NCBI RefSeq assembly: GCF_902827225.1
Contig: NZ_LR792632.1
Location: 949,030 to 1,013,029 of the forward strand
Direction of reading: 5' to 3'
From: Methanocaldococcus lauensis
GTDB taxonomy: Archaea; AGJL01; Methanococci; Methanococcales; Methanocaldococcaceae
Length of the DNA: 64,000 bases
Under the pieces are notes generated by a model that was not told the origin of the DNA, did not search any database, and saw only the letters and a program-made list of their open reading frames with translations. Shown here piece by piece: positions 5,687-13,647 of the stretch. The position numbers and the translations under genes were made by a program. Position 1 is the first letter of the stretch; each line of letters begins with the position of its first letter.

Positions 5687-7660
5687 ATGTCCCCAAGAGT
5701 TGGGGTATTTGTCTGTTATTGTGGATCTAACATTAATGGTGTTGTAGATTGTGAGGCAGTTAGAGATTTTGCAGAAAAATTAGATGGAGTTGTTGTTGCT
5801 AAAACATATCCTTTTATGTGTGCTGATCCAGGTCAAAACTTGATTAAAGAATGTATAAAGGAATATAACTTAGATAGGATCGTTGTAGCTGCATGTACTC
5901 CAAAGATCCACGAGCCTACTTTTAGAAATTGTATAAAAGAAGCAGGGTTATCTCCATATTACTTGGAGTTCGTAAATATTAGAGAACAGTGTGCATTTGT
6001 ACATATGAATGATCCAGAAAAAGCTACTAAAAAGGCAATGGAGTTAGTTGCAGGAGGTGTAGAAAGAGCTAAGAAATTAGAAGATGTTCCTCAAAAAGTT
6101 GTTAATGTAGATAAATCTTGCCTTATAATTGGAGGAGGTATTGCAGGAATCCAGGCAGCTCTTGACTTGGGAGATCAAGGTTATAAAGTATATTTAGTAG
6201 AGAAAGAGCCATCAATTGGAGGAAGGATGGCTCAACTTGCTAAGACATTCCCAACTGATGACTGTGCTATGTGAATTTTGGCTCCAAAGATGGTTAGCGT
6301 TGCAAACCACCCCAATGTTGAGCTCATAACCTATGCCGAAGTTAAAAATATCGAAGGATACATCGGAAACTTTGAAGTTACAATTGAAAAAAAGCCAAGA
6401 TATGTTGATGAAAATATTTGTACTGGATGTGGAGCCTGTGCCGCAGTTTGTCCAATTGAAGTTCCAAATGAGTTTGATTTAGGATTAGGTACAAGAAAAG
6501 CAATTTATGTTCCATTTGCTCAGGCAGTTCCATTGGTATATACAATAGATATGGAACACTGTATAAGATGTGGACTCTGTGAAAAAGCTTGTGGCCCTGG
6601 AGCTATAAGATACGATCAAAAACCAGAAGAGATTAAATTGAAAGTAGGAACAATAATCTGTGCAGTAGGTTATGATGAATTTGATGCAACATTAAAAGAA
6701 GAGTATGGATATGGAGTTTATGATAATGTCATAACAACATTAGAATTAGAGAGGATGATTAACCCCGCAGGTCCTACTGGTGGGCATGAAATAAGACCAA
6801 GTGATGGAAAGCATCCTCATAGAGTAGTATTTATACAGTGTGTAGGTTCAAGAGATGCTAAAGTTGGAAAACCATACTGTTCAAGAATTTGCTGTATGTT
6901 TGCCTTAAAGAACGCTCAGTTACTTAAACAGCATGACCCTAATACTGAAGTTTATATCTGCTATATGGATATCAGGGCTTTCGGTAAAGGATATGAAGAA
7001 TACTATAGAAGAGCTCAGGAACAGTTTGGAGTTAAGTTCATTAGAGGAAGACCAGCATGCATAATGGAAGATCCAGAAACAAAGAACTTAATTGTTAGAG
7101 TAGAAGATACATTGTTAGGAGAAATTGTAGAAATTGAAGCTGATTTAGTTGTATTGTCAGCAGGATTATCACCAAGACCAGACAATCCAAAATTAGCAAA
7201 AATGCTTGGTATAGAATTAAGTCCAGATGGATTCTTCAAAGAATTACATCCAAAGTTAGCTCCAGTAAATACAAAAGTTGATGGTGTAGCAATTGCAGGA
7301 GTTGCTCAAGGACCAAAAGACATTCCAGATACAGTTGCTCAAGCGAAAGGGGCTGCAAGTGCAGTGTCAATACCAATGGCTCAGGGAGAGTTTAAGATTG
7401 AGATGATTAGAGCAGTTGTTGATGAAGATATTTGTGGAGGATGTGAAGTTTGTGCTAAAATGTGTCCATATAATGCTATAACTTATGTAGAAAAAGATGG
7501 ACATAAAGTAGCTCAAGTTAATGATGTTGCCTGTAAAGGTTGTGGAGCATGTGCTGGAGCATGTCCAAGTGGTGCTATGCAGTTGAGATATTACAGAGAT
7601 GAGCAAATAATTTCATTTATTGATGGAGTATTAGAGGCTCACCAAAAATTAGAGAGTTAA
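5687..7660 (+). CDS. hdrA: Heterodisulfide reductase subunit A (selenoprotein HdrA)
   Basis: 657 residues when the in-frame UGA at 6272-6274 is read as selenocysteine 196, within PTDDCAM-Sec-ILAPKM; HdrA family members have Cys or Sec there. Order: N-terminal domain with GVFVCYCG, an FAD-binding [10 protein letters not shown] (about residues 153-162), the Sec region, then four CxxCxxCxxxC [4Fe-4S] motifs beginning CTGCGAC, CIRCGLC, CGGCEVC and CKGCGAC. HdrA holds the bifurcating flavin that couples H2 oxidation by the Vhu hydrogenase to CoM-S-S-CoB and ferredoxin reduction. Start ATG 5687 has the strong site GGAGGTGA; a reading from 5660 lacks one. It heads the vhu/fwdB cluster. A SECIS hairpin and antisense segments lie in its 3' UTR. 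Confidence 0.96.
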
Positions 7661-7663
7661 AAA

Positions 7664-7723
7664 GGCACAGGCTCCACATCTATCCATATAAATATGGCAT
7701 AGGTTATGAGCTCAACATTGGGG
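7664..7723 (+). repeat. Antisense copies of hdrA coding sequence in hdrA 3' UTR
   Basis: Two blocks in the 3' UTR are perfect reverse complements of hdrA coding sequence. Bases 7696-7723 (28 nt) pair with 6310-6337, starting 35 nt after the Sec UGA. Bases 7664-7680 (17 nt) pair with 6426-6442. The blocks keep antisense order, separated by 15 nt containing the palindrome 7684-7697. The SECIS starts 20 nt further on. A 28-nt perfect match at this place is far beyond chance. The function is unknown; long-range mRNA pairing is my inference. Confidence 0.85.
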
Positions 7724-7743
7724 GTAGATAAATACCAAATGAG

Positions 7744-7776
7744 GCACCATCCGAAGGCTTTTTGCCAGGATGGTGC
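7744..7776 (+). promoter_or_regulatory. SECIS element of hdrA
   Basis: Archaeal SECIS architecture is complete: a 9-bp lower stem (7744-7752 with 7768-7776), the asymmetric internal loop GAA (7753-7755) opposite a single A (7767), a GGC/GCC upper stem and a five-T apical loop (7759-7763). It lies 83 nt after the hdrA stop and serves UGA 6272-6274, about 1.47 kb upstream. A further short hairpin (GGGCA/TGCCC, 7784-7795) follows. Confidence 0.93.
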
Positions 7777-7881
7777 TGATGGGAGGGCATGTGCCCGTAA
7801 TTATCTCTTTCTAATTTCTCTTTACTAATTTAATAGATCACTATTTAAAACTAATAAAATTCAAATTATAAGGGGATGTGT

Positions 7882-8289
7882 ATGAGTGATCCAATAATAA
7901 TTGCATTCTGTTGCTATCAATGAGGATATGGGGCTGCAGATTTAGCGGGAACCAGTAAAATGCAATACCCTGCAACCGTAAGAATCGTTAGGCTCCCTTG
8001 CACAGGTAAGTTTGACATTACTTATGCATTAAGGGCCTTCCAAAAGGGAGCCGATGCCGTTATGGTTGTAGGATGAAAGAAAGGAGAGTGTGCCTACGAA
8101 ACAGGGAACTTTAAAGCTGAAGAGAGGGTTAGGTTCGCTAAACAATTGTTAGACGAATTAGGAATTTGTGGAGAGAGAATTGAAATGTTTTTCATGACAG
8201 CAGCTGAAGCAGACAAATTTGTAGCTGCAGCTAATGAAATGACTGAAAGAGTTAAAAAGTTAGGACCTAACCCTCTCAAAGCTCAGTAA
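7882..8289 (+). CDS. vhuD: F420-non-reducing hydrogenase subunit D (VhuD), two selenocysteines
   Basis: 135 residues from ATG 7882, with two in-frame UGA codons at 7921-7923 (Sec14, in FCCYQ-Sec-GYG) and 8074-8076 (Sec65, in VVG-Sec-KKGEC). Standard gene finding misses it because of these. The family (MvhD/VhuD, delta subunit) carries an iron-sulfur centre and docks the hydrogenase to HdrA, passing electrons to its flavin; Cys versions have Cys at the same places. Further Cys residues at 10, 11, 40 and 70 can act as ligands. GGGGATGTG lies just before the start. It sits between hdrA and vhuG, with its own SECIS 22 nt after the stop serving both UGAs. Confidence 0.93.
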
Positions 8290-8290
8290 A

Positions 8291-8373
8291 GCCGGAGATT
8301 AAAGGGATGAGTTCTCTCGGGAACCCGAAAGGGACCGAGAGAACAACCGCCCCTATGTGAGGGGTTCTCCGGC
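8291..8373 (+). promoter_or_regulatory. SECIS element of vhuD within a three-way junction
   Basis: The SECIS proper is 8311-8344: a 10-bp stem (8311-8320 with 8335-8344), GAA (8321-8323) opposite A (8334), CCC/GGG and a GAAA loop. It is enclosed by an 8-bp outer stem pairing 8291-8298 with 8366-8373, which also encloses a small C4/G4 hairpin (8350-8353 with 8361-8364). The vhuD SECIS is thus one arm of a predicted three-way junction. One SECIS must serve the two UGA codons of vhuD. Confidence 0.9.
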
Positions 8374-8413
8374 AATTTAAATAAAATTTTTTAAAGTTTT
8401 TAGGGTGATTACC

Positions 8414-9271
8414 TTGGCAGTTAAAGTTGGAATGATACAGTTATGTGGATGTTCAGGATGCCACATATCATTGTTAGACTTACATGAAAAGTTATTAGAA
8501 GTATTGCCAAATTTAGAGATTGTCTATGCCCCAATAATTGCAGATCCAAAAGAAATTCCTGAAGGAATAGATGTATTTTTAGTTGAGGGTGGAGTTAGGA
8601 ATGAGCATGATGAACATCTACTTCATGAAATAAGAGAAAAATCAAAAATTGTTATTGCTTGGGGGACATGTGCCGCTTATGGAGGTATTCCAGGATTGGC
8701 TAACTTATACACAAAAGAAGAATTATTAAATACGGTATATTCAACTGATTCAACTGAAAATAAAGGAGAAATTCCTTCTGAAGAAATTCCTCCTTTAACA
8801 GAATATGTTAAGCCAATAAGTGATTACATAAAAGTCGATTATGTAATTCCAGGATGCCCACCAACACCAAAAATGATCGCTGATGCCATTATAGCTTTAT
8901 TGAATGGAGAAGAGCCTAAATTACCAACAAAAATTGTATGTGATGAATGTCCAAGAAAGAAAGAAAATGTATTCCCAGAGAAGTTTAAGAGGACATTTGA
9001 AGGAAAGCCAGATCCAGAAAAATGTCTTTTTGAGCAAGGTTACACATGTTTAGGATTCGCTACAAGAGCTGGTTGTGGGGCAAAGTGTCCTAAGGCAGGA
9101 GTTCCTTGTAGAGGATGTTATGGAAAGACAGATAAATCCTTAGATTTAGGTGCAAATGCGGCAAATGTTTTGGCTAACGCTGGAGAAGCCGCTTTAGAAA
9201 TATCTGATAAAGTAGCTCTATTAAATAGATTTACATTAGCATCTGCGTTAATTAATAGAAAGGTAAAATAA
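8414..9271 (+). CDS. vhuG: F420-non-reducing hydrogenase small subunit (VhuG)
   Basis: About 285 residues, the small [NiFe] hydrogenase subunit that relays electrons from the active site through iron-sulfur clusters towards VhuD and HdrA. Seen: IQLCGCSGCHISLLDLHEKL for the proximal cluster, AWGTCAAYGG, IPGCPPTPKMIADAI, then Cys-rich segments CDECPRKKENV, CLFEQGYTCLGFATRAGCGAKCP and CRGCYG for the other clusters. I chose TTG 8414, giving MAVKVGMIQLCGC, because AGGGTGAT (8402-8409) is a ribosome site that overlaps the alternative GTG at 8405. It begins 41 nt after the vhuD junction structure. There is no signal peptide, consistent with a cytoplasmic enzyme. Confidence 0.93.
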   Translation: MAVKVGMIQLCGCSGCHISLLDLHEKLLEVLPNLEIVYAPIIADPKEIPEGIDVFLVEGGVRNEHDEHLLHEIREKSKIVIAWGTCAAYGGIPGLANLYTKEELLNTVYSTDSTENKGEIPSEEIPPLTEYVKPISDYIKVDYVIPGCPPTPKMIADAIIALLNGEEPKLPTKIVCDECPRKKENVFPEKFKRTFEGKPDPEKCLFEQGYTCLGFATRAGCGAKCPKAGVPCRGCYGKTDKSLDLGANAANVLANAGEAALEISDKVALLNRFTLASALINRKVK

Positions 9272-9299
9272 TTTAAATAAACTAAACAAGGGTGAATTT

Positions 9300-10556
9300 A
9301 TGGGGAAAATAGTAATTGAACCCCTATCAAGGTTGGAAGGTCACGGAAAAGTAACTATAACTTTAGATGAAAATGGTAATCCTAAGGATGTTAAATTACA
9401 TATAACTGCATTAAGAGGTTTTGAGCAATTTGTTGTAGGAAGACCAGCTGAGGAAGTGCCAAGAATCGTTCCAAGGATCTGTGGAATTTGTCAAACTCCT
9501 CACCATTTAGCAAGTGTTAAGGCTGTTGATAACGCTTGGGATGTAGAAATTCCTGAGCCAGCAAAAAAATTAAGAGAATTAATGAACATTGGTAATATAA
9601 TTCATAGTCATGCTTTGCACTTCTACTTTTTAGCAGCTCCTGACTTTGTACTTGGAGTAGATGCTGATCCTAAGATAAGAAATGTAATAGGAGTTATAGA
9701 CAAAGCTCCTGAAGTTGCTAAGCAGGCAATTGAATTGAGAAAATTTGGACAGAAAATTGTTGAAATGATTGGAGGAAAAGCAATTCATCCAGTTACTGGA
9801 ATTCCAGGAGGGCAAGCAAAAAGATTAACTGAGGAAGAGAGAGATGAGCTACTAAAAGATATAGATAGAATGATAGAATATGCCAAAAATGGAGTAGAAT
9901 TAATAAAGAAATTAAACGAACAGTATATGGACTTAATAAAAACATTAGGAGTTATAGACACATGGTATTTGGGTTTAGTTAAAGATGGAAAACATAATGT
10001 TTATGATGGAACTTTAAGATTCTTATCTCCTGATGGAAAAGAGAAAGTAGAATTTAAACCTAATGAATATTTAGATTATATTGGGGAACATGTAGTTTCA
10101 TACAACTATGTTAAGCATCCATTTTATAAAAAAGTTGGATATCCTGAAGGAATTTATAGAGTAGGCCCATTATCAATGTTAAATGTCTGTAATTCAATGG
10201 AAACTGATTTAGCTGAAGAATATAGAAAAGAATTCTTTGATATTTTTGGATTTCCAGCAAATCAATCATTAGCATATCATCATGCAAGATTAATAGAACT
10301 TGTTAAGGCGTGTGAAAAAGCAAAGATATTGTTAGAAGATAATGACATAACGTCTGATGATATAAAAGCAGAGGTAGAACCTAAAGCAGGAAACGGTGTA
10401 GGGGTAGTATATGCCCCAAGAGGGGTTTTAATACACAATTATGAAACTGATGAGAATGGAATTGTTGTTAAGGCAAACATGATAGTAGCATCAACGCATA
10501 ATGTTCCTACAATGGAAAAAGCAATTCAACAGGCAGCTAAAGAAATATTTAAATAA
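9300..10556 (+). CDS. vhuA: F420-non-reducing hydrogenase large subunit (VhuA), lacking its C-terminal peptide
   Basis: 418 residues with EPLSRLEGHGKV at the N-terminus and the first active-site pair RICGICQTPHH (about residues 60-70) that ligates the Ni-Fe centre. The usual C-terminal DPCxxCxxH is absent; it is encoded separately as vhuU, as in other Sec-type Vhu hydrogenases. Thus VhuA and VhuU together form the large subunit. GGTGA at 9291-9295 precedes the start. The enzyme oxidises H2 in the cytoplasm and feeds electrons to HdrABC. There is a 28-nt gap from vhuG and an 83-nt gap to vhuU. Confidence 0.95.
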   Translation: MGKIVIEPLSRLEGHGKVTITLDENGNPKDVKLHITALRGFEQFVVGRPAEEVPRIVPRICGICQTPHHLASVKAVDNAWDVEIPEPAKKLRELMNIGNIIHSHALHFYFLAAPDFVLGVDADPKIRNVIGVIDKAPEVAKQAIELRKFGQKIVEMIGGKAIHPVTGIPGGQAKRLTEEERDELLKDIDRMIEYAKNGVELIKKLNEQYMDLIKTLGVIDTWYLGLVKDGKHNVYDGTLRFLSPDGKEKVEFKPNEYLDYIGEHVVSYNYVKHPFYKKVGYPEGIYRVGPLSMLNVCNSMETDLAEEYRKEFFDIFGFPANQSLAYHHARLIELVKACEKAKILLEDNDITSDDIKAEVEPKAGNGVGVVYAPRGVLIHNYETDENGIVVKANMIVASTHNVPTMEKAIQQAAKEIFK

Positions 10557-10639
10557 AACTTTTTGGAAAATTTAGAATTACGCTCATCCTATTTATCTTA
10601 TTACCATTTTAATATAGTATAATAATTGTGGTGATGAGT

Positions 10640-10792
10640 ATGGCTGAAAAAAGCACAGTAAAAGTTGATGAGGCTAAATTAAACTTAATAGAGATCGTTT
10701 TAAGAGCATATGATCCTTGATATTCATGTGCGGCACACATAATAGTAAAAGATAAGAAAGGAGAAAAAATTATTGAAGTTATAAAAGAATAA
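10640..10792 (+). CDS. vhuU: F420-non-reducing hydrogenase selenocysteine peptide (VhuU)
   Basis: A 50-residue peptide, with UGA 10718-10720 read as Sec27 in DP-Sec-YSCAAH. This is the C-terminal large-subunit motif DPUxxCxxH; the Sec is a terminal ligand to nickel in Sec-type hydrogenases. The residues after the His (IIVKDKKGEKIIEVIKE) remain, whereas in ordinary large subunits the segment after this motif is removed by a maturation protease. Start ATG 10640 is chosen because GGTGA at 10630-10634 is five bases before it; ATG 10634 overlaps that site. It lies between vhuA and vhuB and is easily missed because it is short and contains UGA. Confidence 0.94.
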
Positions 10793-10827
10793 GCTCACAA
10801 CCGAACCCTTTTGGGAGGTTGTGAGCT
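10792..10827 (+). promoter_or_regulatory. SECIS element of vhuU, overlapping the stop codon
   Basis: An 11-bp stem (10792-10802 with 10817-10827), GAA (10803-10805) opposite A (10816), CCC/GGG, and a TTTT apical loop. The first stem base is the last base of the vhuU UAA stop codon, so the hairpin begins inside the stop. It lies only 72 nt after the UGA codon, the shortest UGA-SECIS spacing in the window. Confidence 0.93.
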
Positions 10828-10830
10828 ATT

Positions 10831-10879
10831 ATCCCCTTACGCATGGGGATTATGCTAAAATCCTTTTAGGGGTTTTAGC
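10831..10879 (+). promoter_or_regulatory. Two hairpins between the vhuU SECIS and vhuB
   Basis: After the SECIS come two more inverted repeats: ATCCCC/GGGGAT (10831-10836 with 10845-10850) and a 10-bp stem with one G-T pair (10854-10863 with 10870-10879). They fill the space before the vhuB ribosome site. No U-tract follows, so a terminator is not obvious; a processing site or translational spacer is possible. Confidence 0.5.
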
Positions 10880-10909
10880 TCAAAATCTTTTGAGGAGGAT
10901 GTGATAATT

Positions 10910-12082
10910 ATGAGCATAACCATACAAAAAGAAGCATGTTTAGTGTGCTATGCATGCCAAGCAGAATGTCCGACAAAGGCGATAGATATAGACAGTTTTA
11001 AAGTGTGTAATTTATGTATGCAGTGTGTCAATGTATGCCCGACAGGGGCGTTAGTAGAGGAAGAGATAGAGATTGAAGGAAAAACCGCGAAGAGAGTTAA
11101 TTACTTAGCTCATAAGTGTGAGAAGTGTGGGCAATGTGCGGAGGTATGTCCTGTAGGGATTAAGAAGGTTGATGATAAATTTCCATATTCAAAAGGACAT
11201 TGCGTTTTATGTCAAAAATGTATAGAAGTTTGTCCAATTGAAATAATCTCCTTACCAGGGATTATAGACAAACCTAAAAAAGAAGTTAAAGCTCCAAAAG
11301 AACCTATAGCGGTTACAGACGCTTGTGTTGGCTGTGGAATCTGTGTTCCAGAGTGTCCTGTAGATGCAATAACACTAAAAGATAACAAGGCAGTTATTGA
11401 TAAAAGCAAGTGTATTTACTGCAGTATTTGTGCCCAAACATGTCCATGGAATGCGATATTTGTAGCGGGTAAGATACCTAAGAAGAGAAGAAAAGAAGTT
11501 AAGAAATTTGATGTTGATGCAGAAAAATGTATTTACTGTCTAAAGTGTGTTGAAATCTGTCCAGGAGATATGATTAAGGTTGATGAGGAAAATATGGTTG
11601 TTGTTCCACCAAAATCATGTCCCGCTTGTAAGCTGTGTGTAAATATCTGTCCAGTCGATGCTTTAGAGTTGGATGTTAAATTAGCCTCTCCACATCCGAT
11701 AACTGATGAAGGTTTAGTTATTGTAGAAGAGGATTTCGATGTATTGAAGAAATGTGCTTCTGTCTGTCCTACTGAGGCAATAGTCGTAGATGAAGAGAAG
11801 AAAGAAGTTAGAATGTGTATCGTTTGTGGAGCATGTACTGTAGCTTGCCCAACTGGTGCTTTAAAGTTGGGTAAAATAGAACATAATGGTAAGGAATACA
11901 ACAGAATCGAATTCAGCCCTTACCTATGTGATAAATGTGGAAAATGTGTCGAAGTCTGCCCAATGAAGACACTAAGACTCACTAAGAGTAAAAAACTTCC
12001 ATTAAAAGGTTACTGCGTAATGTGCCTCCTCTGCCTCTCCTGCGCTGAGGCTGAAAAAAAGAATGTTTTAACACTTAAGTAA
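10910..12082 (+). CDS. vhuB: Polyferredoxin VhuB
   Basis: About 390 residues made of repeated bacterial-type ferredoxin units. I count about a dozen CxxCxxCxxxC[P] motifs, starting with [24 protein letters not shown] and [12 protein letters not shown] and ending [12 protein letters not shown] and an irregular [10 protein letters not shown]. This is the polyferredoxin of the hydrogenase cluster, thought to carry many [4Fe-4S] clusters for electron transfer between hydrogenase, heterodisulfide reductase and formylmethanofuran dehydrogenase. ATG 10910 is preferred; a GTG at 10901 overlaps GAGGAGGATGTGAT. The gene ends 31 nt before fwdB, consistent with co-transcription. Confidence 0.93.
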
Positions 12083-12113
12083 ATAGAATAATATATAATT
12101 TAGGTGAGTAAAT

Positions 12114-13421
12114 ATGGTAAAAGTCGTTAGAAATGTAGTATGCCCATTTTGTGCGACATTATGTGATGATTTAGAGATATTAGTTGAAGATAACCACATA
12201 GTAGGGACAAGACATGCTTGTAGAATTGGAAATGCAAAGTTTATGCACTTCGAGGGGGCTGTTAGATATACTGAACCTTTAATGAGAGAGAACAAAAAAG
12301 ATGATTTCAAAAAAGTTGATTATGATACAGCAATTGAAGAGACTGCAAGATTATTAGTTGAATCATCCTTACCTTTAATTTATGGATGGAGTGCAACTGA
12401 ATGTCATTCACAAATGTATGGAGTTGAGTTAGCTGAATTAGTCGGGGCAGTTATTGACAATACAGCAAGTGTTTGACACGGACCTTCAGTTATGGCATTG
12501 CAGGATGTAGGATACCCAGTTTGTACATTAGGAGAAGTTAAAAACAGAGCTGATGTAGTTATATTTTGGGGAAGTAATCCAATGCACGCCCACCCAAGAC
12601 ACATGAGTAGATATTCAATATTCGCAAGAGGATTTTTCAGAGAAAGAGGAAGAGAAGACAGAACTATGATTGTTGTAGACCCAAGAGAGACAGATACTGC
12701 GAAATTGGCTGATATACACTTACAGGTTGAACAGCATAAAGATTATGAATTAGTTAGTGCAATGAGAGCAGTGTTAAAAGGATTTGAATTACAAGTTGAT
12801 AGAGTCGCTGGAGTTCCAGCTGATTTAATCTATGAGGCAGTTGAAATTTGTAAAAATGCTCAGTTTGGAGAGTTGTTTTTCGCAATGGGAGTAACAATGA
12901 CAAGAGGTAAGCATAGAAACATTGATAATGCTATTCAATTAGTAATTGATTTAAATGCATATACAAAATTCGGATTAATGCCAATGAGAGGTCACTACAA
13001 CGTAAATGGATTCAACCAGGTCTTAACTTGGGTTACAGGTTATCCATTTGGCATTGATTTCTCAAGAGGTTACCCAAGATACAATCCTGGAGAGACTACA
13101 GCTAACGATTTATTACAAAGAGGAGAAACTGACATGATGTTAAATATTGCTTCAGACCCAGGGGCTCACTTCCCACAAAAAGCTGTAAAACACATGGCAA
13201 AAATACCATTAGTATGTATAGAACCTCATGAAACTCCAACAACTCAATTAGCGAATATTATAATCCCCCCAGCAATTGCTGGAGTTGAAGTTGAAGGAAC
13301 AGCATATAGAATGGATGGTGTTCCAATTAAATTAAGAAAAGTTATTGATCCTCCAGAAGGCGTTTTACCAGATAAAGAAATATTGAAGAGGCTCATTAAG
13401 AAAGTTAAAGAGATGCTCTAA
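12114..13421 (+). CDS. fwdB: Tungsten formylmethanofuran dehydrogenase subunit B (selenoprotein FwdB)
   Basis: 435 residues when UGA 12474-12476 is read as Sec121, in NTASV-Sec-HGPSV, the position of the W/Mo ligand (Cys in other species). N-terminal [12 protein letters not shown] gives Cys ligands for a [4Fe-4S] cluster. The rest ([52 protein letters not shown]) fits the catalytic pterin subunit of formylmethanofuran dehydrogenase, which reduces CO2 to formylmethanofuran with ferredoxin, the first step of methanogenesis. TAGGTGAG lies upstream of ATG 12114. It closes the Sec cluster, linking CO2 reduction to the bifurcating Hdr-Vhu complex. Other fwd genes are not present here. Confidence 0.95.
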
Positions 13422-13472
13422 AAAATTTAATAAGAAAAATATAAATATTGAATTTATACTTAATGGAATATC

Positions 13473-13519
13473 GGGGTGGGCGTGCAACGCTAACCATCTT
13501 TGGGTATCCTACATCCTGC
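13473..13519 (+). repeat. Antisense segments in fwdB 3' UTR complementary to hdrA and fwdB
   Basis: Bases 13483-13503 (21 nt) are a perfect reverse complement of hdrA 6284-6304, starting 9 nt after the hdrA Sec codon; 13473-13479 adds 7 more complementary bases (hdrA 6307-6313). Bases 13501-13519 (19 nt) are a perfect reverse complement of fwdB 12500-12518, starting 23 nt after the fwdB Sec codon. The SECIS follows 13 nt later. Locally 13481-13490 can also pair with 13518-13527 (9 of 10), which would compete. The function is unknown. Confidence 0.85.
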
Positions 13520-13532
13520 GTTACACGTCGTA

Positions 13533-13566
13533 TGTTGGAGGGGAACCCGTAAGGGACCCTCCAACA
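13533..13566 (+). promoter_or_regulatory. SECIS element of fwdB
   Basis: A 10-bp stem (13533-13542 with 13557-13566), GAA (13543-13545) opposite A (13556), CCC/GGG and a GTAA loop. It lies 111 nt after the fwdB stop and about 1.06 kb from the UGA at 12474. A run of T follows the hairpin, so it may also serve near a transcript end. Confidence 0.93.
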
Positions 13567-13647
13567 TTTTATTATTTTAGACACTTAAATTTATTAATTT
13601 AAATTTATAAATTAAATTTTATAAAATAAAAAATTATAATGATAACT

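What the first reader, a model, noticed from the sequence alone, without database searches (positions are those of the whole stretch)
12474..13566. fwdB 3' UTR is antisense to both fwdB and hdrA, near their Sec codons
Seen: 13501-13519 is a perfect 19-nt reverse complement of fwdB 12500-12518, 23 nt after its UGA. 13483-13503 is a perfect 21-nt reverse complement of hdrA 6284-6304, 9 nt after the hdrA UGA, with 7 further complementary bases. The SECIS begins 13 nt later. The fwdB UTR thus pairs with its own gene and with hdrA, covering the piece directly adjacent to the one covered by the hdrA UTR. Inference: cis pairing for fwdB, and cis (same polycistronic mRNA) or trans pairing with hdrA, could tune the two selenoproteins together.
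Basis: partly seen in the sequence, partly recalled or inferred. Interest (0 to 1): 0.9.

Follow-up and report, generated by a model that had tools for sequence, protein, structure and literature searches.

The report
RNA tethers bring SECIS to UGA
In heat-loving methane-making archaea, short stretches beside the selenocysteine signal at the end of an mRNA are exact mirror copies of the coding sequence just after the UGA codon, and they have co-evolved with it for base-pairing, so the mRNA probably folds back to bring the distant signal next to the codon it must recode.

Summary
In this Methanocaldococcus genome the fwdB 3' UTR is antisense to fwdB and to hdrA just after their Sec UGAs. Comparing 36 Methanococcales genomes shows this is part of a wider design. 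A UTR segment 7-23 nt before the SECIS pairs with the CDS mostly 16-35 nt after the UGA in hdrA and fwdB. In selD the segment is usually 14-40 nt before the SECIS and pairs 6-9 nt after the UGA. Wobble positions change on both sides together. In selD, all six double-changing pairs stay paired in all 14 rows. Cys paralogs of fwdB lack the pairing. The best reading is a long-range tether that brings a SECIS about 1-1.5 kb away next to its UGA. A two-sided tether was published in 2025 for the 5'-UTR SECIS of fdhA (PMC11881835), where a reporter showed no gain in activity, twofold per mRNA. I found no report of tethers in hdrA, fwdB or selD, nor of the hdrA x fwdB-UTR cross pairing. That pairing is unique in the genome and present in all 8 Methanocaldococcus genomes testable, but without covariation. 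One operon-end SECIS serving two UGAs is possible, not shown.

The parts
5687..7660 (+). hdrA selenoprotein CDS (UGA 6272-6274)
   Evidence: ORF open with one UGA; orthologues with one TGA in 32 of 36 Methanococcales genomes
6284..6304 (+). hdrA site +12..+32 after the UGA, complementary to the fwdB UTR (cross tether); extended by 6307-6313
   Evidence: zero synonymous change over codons +12..+39 in 10 Methanocaldococcus genomes
6310..6337 (+). hdrA site +38..+65, complementary to the hdrA UTR (own tether)
6426..6442 (+). hdrA second tether site (+154..+170)
   Evidence: wobble changes matched in G001, G002, G034, G035
7664..7680 (+). hdrA UTR segment pairing with 6426-6442
7696..7723 (+). hdrA UTR tether pairing with 6310-6337
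7743..7777 (+). hdrA SECIS (GAA/A motif); lies inside Rfam flpD RNA 7735-7782
7882..8289 (+). vhuD (UGAs 7921-7923 and 8074-8076)
8265..8277 (+). weak candidate tether in the vhuD 3' coding end, pairing with vhuD 8122-8134 (48 nt after the start of UGA2)
   Evidence: kept in two genomes with Cys in place of UGA2; low confidence
8311..8344 (+). vhuD SECIS
10640..10792 (+). vhuU (UGA 10718-10720), about 72 nt from its SECIS; no tether seen
10792..10827 (+). vhuU SECIS
12114..13421 (+). fwdB selenoprotein CDS (UGA 12474-12476)
12500..12518 (+). fwdB site +26..+44, complementary to its own UTR
12583..12595 (+). fwdB second site (+109..+121), complementary to its own UTR
13474..13486 (+). fwdB UTR segment pairing with fwdB 12583-12595; overlaps the hdrA segments, so mutually exclusive with them
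13473..13503 (+). fwdB UTR segment complementary to hdrA (13483-13503 x 6284-6304; 13473-13479 x 6307-6313)
13501..13519 (+). fwdB UTR tether pairing with fwdB 12500-12518
13532..13567 (+). fwdB SECIS

Best explanation
The complementary pieces are the two halves of a long-range RNA duplex that tethers the 3'-UTR SECIS close to the Sec UGA. When the mRNA folds back, the UTR segment just 5' of the SECIS pairs with the coding sequence just 3' of the UGA. The SECIS, 1.0-1.5 kb away along the chain, then hangs off the UGA-proximal end of the duplex, just ahead of a ribosome at that UGA. Such a ribosome would open the helix as it moves on, and the helix could re-form for the next one. SHOWN: complementarity, conservation, compensatory changes, and near-fixed geometry in hdrA and fwdB. 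INFERRED: that the duplex forms in cells, that it raises Sec insertion, and that this matters most at high temperature. The hdrA-matching piece in the fwdB UTR is read as a second tether, which would let the operon-terminal SECIS also reach the hdrA UGA. That step is the least certain.
For: Same design in three genes with 3'-UTR SECIS (hdrA, fwdB, selD) plus fdhA with a 5'-UTR SECIS, across up to 5 genera. Compensatory changes: selD 96% of cells paired, all 6 double-changing pairs stay paired in 14 rows, one pair as GC/UA/CG, 0/500 shuffles; fwdB column 12-66 as UA/CG/GC/AU/UG; hdrA 31 double-changed cells, 0/500; sliding by 1-3 columns abolishes it. Swap test: own CDS is the best partner, or nearly so, for most hdrA and selD UTRs. 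In most tethered genomes few or none of 300 same-protein recodings reach the observed score. Geometry: duplex starts 16-35 nt after the UGA in hdrA and fwdB for nearly all, and 6-9 nt in selD; duplex-to-SECIS linker 7-23 nt in hdrA and fwdB although the tether lies anywhere from about 17 to 160 nt into the UTR. Cys paralogs of fwdB show none. UGAs near their SECIS (fruA 75-78 nt before its stop, vhuU about 72 nt from its SECIS) show none. All-against-all in this genome: SECIS flank x UGA window scores high on the diagonal and at fwdB UTR x hdrA; vhuD UGA2 is intermediate. Predicted duplexes hold at 85 C, with the SECIS still folded.
Against: A reporter test of fdhA-like flanks in Methanococcus maripaludis gave unchanged activity, about 3-fold less mRNA and about 2-fold more activity per mRNA; a SECIS 520-679 nt away works without a tether (PMC11881835, PMC9622424). 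So the tether is not essential at that organism's growth temperature. Several genomes lack tethers: g2 mostly; selD in g3 and g4; hdrA in G003, G007, G008, G012, G013. fwdB conservation alone is weaker in some g3 genomes and G013. A long duplex could equally act as a ribosome pause or affect mRNA stability. Nothing here shows the duplex in cells.
Confidence: 0.72

Rival explanations
1. Downstream roadblock: the duplex mainly slows the ribosome at the UGA, giving time for Sec-tRNA, like the codon-redefinition stem-loops of some animal selenoprotein genes. Placing the SECIS is secondary.
For: The duplex starts 6-35 nt after the UGA, where a structure would meet the ribosome; very stable.
Against: A roadblock could be a local hairpin in the CDS, yet the partner strand lies next to the SECIS with a linker of 7-23 nt in hdrA and fwdB. 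UGAs already near their SECIS lack it. Both roles may hold together.
Confidence: 0.15
2. mRNA stability or expression control: UTR-CDS pairing sets mRNA half-life or hides or exposes cleavage sites; the fwdB UTR tunes hdrA and fwdB together, perhaps as a released small RNA.
For: In the published reporter the complementary flanks lowered mRNA about 3-fold. The fwdB UTR pairs with both genes. The fwdB UTR alone also folds into a hairpin that hides both tethers, so a switch is possible.
Against: Does not explain the place right after the UGA, the link to the SECIS, the recurrence in selD and fdhA, or the absence in fwdB Cys paralogs.
Confidence: 0.09
3. No function: inverted copies made and kept by template switching or gene conversion.
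For: Such events can create inverted copies; the cross segment shows no covariation.
Against: Single wobble positions co-change in place in three separate genes; the place relative to the UGA and SECIS is fixed; synonymous change is low at the fwdB, selD and cross-tether sites, although not at the hdrA own-tether site.
Confidence: 0.03

Closest known systems
5'-UTR SECIS of fdhA1 in Methanococcales with flanks complementary to the ORF 3' of the UGA (Peiter and Rother 2025, PMC11881835)
   Same: SECIS next to sequence complementary to the CDS downstream of the UGA; conserved in Methanococcales; longer in thermophiles. Reproduced here: 3' flank pairs +28..+44, 5' flank +45..+55.
   Different: There: 5' UTR, SECIS in the middle of a two-sided duplex, one gene; described as the only 5'-UTR case. 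Here: 3' UTR, one-sided tether 5' of the SECIS, three genes (hdrA, fwdB, selD), extra tethers further down, and a tether to a second gene.
Bacterial SECIS (fdhF type) immediately downstream of the UGA
   Same: The outcome: a SECIS close to the UGA.
   Different: Bacteria use a local hairpin in the CDS; here closeness would come from long-range pairing with a UTR.
Eukaryotic 3'-UTR SECIS and codon-redefinition stem-loops
   Same: SECIS in the 3' UTR; structure after the UGA may help recoding.
   Different: I know of no conserved SECIS-flank to CDS duplex in eukaryotes (own knowledge); the redefinition element is a local hairpin.
Rfam flpD RNA (RF01737)
   Same: The window hit 7735-7782 is the hdrA SECIS.
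   Different: The hit covers only the hairpin, not the tether upstream of it or its partner in hdrA.

Membership tests
SECIS tethered by CDS complementarity (fdhA1 type, PMC11881835) | Functional-type SECIS (GAA/A motif in a stem) adjoining the complementary sequence | tested here: met
   Scanner finds exactly 4 SECIS in the window, 0.2 expected; geometry
SECIS tethered by CDS complementarity (fdhA1 type, PMC11881835) | Complementary CDS lies a few tens of nt 3' of the UGA | tested here: met
   +38 hdrA, +26 fwdB, +10 selD, +28 fdhA
SECIS tethered by CDS complementarity (fdhA1 type, PMC11881835) | Complementary sequence on both sides of the SECIS | tested here: not met
   Only the 5' side in hdrA, fwdB and selD; no pairing of the 3' flank with the UGA window was found in the operon scan, which covers 60 nt past the SECIS. 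Filed as a variant, not a member of the two-sided type
SECIS tethered by CDS complementarity (fdhA1 type, PMC11881835) | SECIS in the 5' UTR | tested here: not met
   hdrA, fwdB and selD SECIS lie after the stop codon
SECIS tethered by CDS complementarity (fdhA1 type, PMC11881835) | Conserved in Methanococcales, longer in thermophiles | tested here: met
   fwdB 17-26 nt in g1, g3 and g5 (mostly), 14 in g4, 10-11 or none in g2; growth temperatures from own knowledge
Conserved RNA duplex | Compensatory base changes | tested here: met
   for selD, fwdB and hdrA own tethers
Conserved RNA duplex | Compensatory base changes in the hdrA x fwdB-UTR cross duplex | tested here: inconclusive
   Site nearly invariant in the genus; the only change (GCT/GCC, codon +9) does not track the UTR consistently
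Small RNA antisense regulator | Separate transcript or processed UTR acting in trans | not testable with these tools
   Needs Northern blot or RNA-seq

The most novel reading that the evidence does not exclude
One SECIS with two tethers: in Methanocaldococcus the SECIS at the end of the hdrA-vhuDGAUB-fwdB cluster carries address sequences for two different UGAs (hdrA and fwdB), so it can serve both on one polycistronic mRNA, or hdrA in trans. G013 fits best: its hdrA UTR has lost the GAA/A SECIS core and own tether while the cross tether is intact; G006 keeps the hdrA SECIS but a decayed own tether.
Probability: 0.33. Interest if true: 0.87.

Novelty: new variant of a known kind. Interest (0 to 1): 0.74.

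Why it matters
How a SECIS at the far end of an archaeal mRNA acts on a UGA more than 1 kb away is unknown, and no archaeal SECIS-binding bridge is known. Co-evolved tethers in three more genes turn a single published curiosity (fdhA) into a general design, give exact bases to mutate, and suggest a testable rule: far UGAs are tethered, near ones are not, and more strongly in thermophiles. An operon-end SECIS addressing two genes would be a new way to share a recoding signal.

Tried and rejected
Chance, and UTR base composition: rejected by shuffles, synonymous recoding and uniqueness. vhuD tether (13 nt, coding end): kept as weak only, because amino acids constrain both strands and two genomes with Cys at UGA2 keep it. 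3' flanks of the 3'-UTR SECIS pairing with the UGA window as in fdhA: not found. Other cross pairings among the Sec genes of this genome: none as strong. hdrA Cys paralogs as a second negative control: my motif search found no match, so only fwdB Cys paralogs were used. Search beyond Methanococcales: the 'phylum' search returned the same 36 genomes, and the genome-contig scan found only Methanococcales, so other Sec archaea were not tested. Local hairpin in the fwdB UTR (13479-13529): may explain part of the conservation of 13482-13490 but not the hdrA match beyond it.

Full report
WHAT IS THERE. It holds a tight plus-strand cluster hdrA-vhuD-G-A-U-B-fwdB (5687-13421). A motif scan finds exactly four SECIS elements in 64 kb, after hdrA, vhuD, vhuU and fwdB, against 0.2 expected. 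The fwdB UTR pairs with fwdB at +26..+44 and +109..+121 after the UGA and with hdrA at +12..+32 and +35..+41. The hdrA UTR pairs with hdrA at +38..+65 and +154..+170. Own-gene pairings are collinear and antiparallel, so they nest without knots.

IS IT MORE THAN CHANCE. In the whole genome the hdrA 21-mer, allowing 3 mismatches, occurs only in hdrA and, inverted, in the fwdB UTR. Recoding the hdrA window with synonymous codons never reached the cross score in 1000 trials in each of 8 genomes; shuffled UTRs never did either. For own-gene pairs, 0-4 of 300 recodings reach the observed score in most tethered genomes for hdrA and selD. fwdB is weaker in several genomes (for example G013 13/300, G021 56/300), because its amino acids and UTR are both well conserved.

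CONSERVATION AND CO-EVOLUTION. Thirty-six Methanococcales genomes were searched. The fwdB pairing at +26..+51 is found in genera g1, g3, g4 and g5 and, as 10-11 nt, in three g2 genomes. The hdrA pairing at +28..+67 is in g1, g3 and g5. The selD pairing at +9..+30 is in g1 and g5. Counted on alignments: selD 96% of cells paired, with six pairs that change on both sides and none broken by those changes (one pair is GC in 8, UA in 4, CG in 2 sequences), 0/500 shuffles. fwdB has seven double-changed pairs, one of them in UA, CG, GC, AU and UG forms. hdrA has 31 double-changed cells, 0/500 shuffles. Sliding the partner by 1-3 columns drops pairing to 24-43%. The register of the UTR pieces was located with the help of the pairing or of its core motif, which leans towards the structure, but columns were then aligned without it. 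The swap test needs no alignment: for hdrA and selD most UTRs pair best with their own species' CDS. The second hdrA tether also shows matched wobble changes (GCC/GCT/GCA and GGA/GGG with the UTR).

GEOMETRY. Across genomes the duplex starts 25-35 nt after the UGA in hdrA (50 in G023), mostly 16-26 in fwdB, and 6-9 in selD. The UTR strand ends 16-23 nt (hdrA) or 7-19 nt (fwdB) before the SECIS stem, although the tether itself lies between about 17 and 160 nt into the hdrA UTR. selD is looser (14-40, with two outliers of 79 and 95). UGA and SECIS are 1.0-1.6 kb apart along the chain. UGAs close to their SECIS (fruA, vhuU) have no tether. Cys paralogs of fwdB have none. In this genome every far UGA-SECIS pair (hdrA, fwdB, selD, fdhA) scores 44-73 and the background 15-28; the only strong off-diagonal entry is fwdB UTR x hdrA, 55.5. 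Predicted duplex energies stay at -17, -12 and -11 kcal/mol at 85 C, with the SECIS still folded.

WHAT IS KNOWN. Peiter and Rother (2025, PMC11881835) noticed that the 5'-UTR SECIS of fdhA1 is flanked by 7 and 10 nt complementary to the ORF, placing it 43 nt after the UGA, conserved in Methanococcales and longer in thermophiles. I reproduce this. Their reporter test showed no gain in activity, about 3-fold less mRNA and about 2-fold more activity per mRNA. Searches of the held library found no report of the 3'-UTR cases or of cross-gene pairing; the library lacks most subscription papers.

HOW IT MOST LIKELY WORKS. Shown: a co-evolved long-range duplex whose place is tied both to the UGA and to the SECIS. 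Inferred: it forms in the mRNA and holds the SECIS close to the UGA when a ribosome arrives, giving by long-range pairing what bacteria get from a local hairpin. The published reporter result says it is an aid rather than a necessity, perhaps more important at high temperature. A pausing role may come with it.

THE CROSS PAIRING. It is present in all 8 g1 genomes where both parts are assembled and intact, including G013, whose hdrA UTR has lost its GAA/A SECIS core and tether, and G006, whose hdrA tether is decayed. hdrA codons +12..+39 show no synonymous change in 10 genomes, against 28% on average elsewhere. But there is no covariation; G012, which lacks the fwdB UTR element, has the same hdrA codons there, so another constraint is possible. 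The fwdB UTR segment for hdrA overlaps the one for the second fwdB site and borders the main one, so the two genes would compete for it. Sharing one SECIS between two UGAs is the most novel reading left open; I give it about one in three.

LIMITS. No experiment; one order only; related genomes inflate counts; genomes G000-G035 are unnamed; the operon is inferred from spacing.

Noticed in passing
L014, L015, L011 (hdrA of G003, G008, G012) and L046, L059, L044 (fwdB): hdrA and fwdB keep their UGA, but no GAA/A SECIS was found near fwdB (apart from the upstream vhuU one in G003 and G012) or at hdrA; only a short hairpin (AUGAAGC..GCUGAU-like) remains after hdrA. How these UGAs are read is unexplained; sharing the vhuD or vhuU SECIS is possible, but fwdB of G008 lies on another contig without vhuB just upstream.
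   Followed up: partly
window 7735-7782: The hdrA SECIS has, below its GAA/A motif, an AUGA..CUGA pair resembling a box C/D kink-turn (L7Ae-type site). This basal part persists in genomes where the GAA/A core is lost.
   Followed up: partly
window 13479-13529: The fwdB UTR alone can fold into a hairpin (GGGCGUG-AACGC..GCGUU-CACGUC) whose stem and loop hide both the hdrA and fwdB tethers; possible switch.
   Followed up: partly
L155 (G033) and L154 (G022): A second, about 60% identical fwdB has its own matching tether (AACUGGAUAUCCUCUA, +32..+47; 11 nt in G022). In G033 the tandem upstream copy, which has no UGA, carries the same tether and SECIS just upstream of the UGA copy.
   Followed up: partly
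L045 (G018): fwdB encodes Cys instead of Sec, yet a SECIS-like hairpin remains in its 3' UTR: a likely fossil SECIS.
   Followed up: no
window 8074-8076: vhuD has two UGAs here, but the same-species genome G005 and close G009 have Cys (TGT) at the second: a recent Sec/Cys switch.
   Followed up: partly
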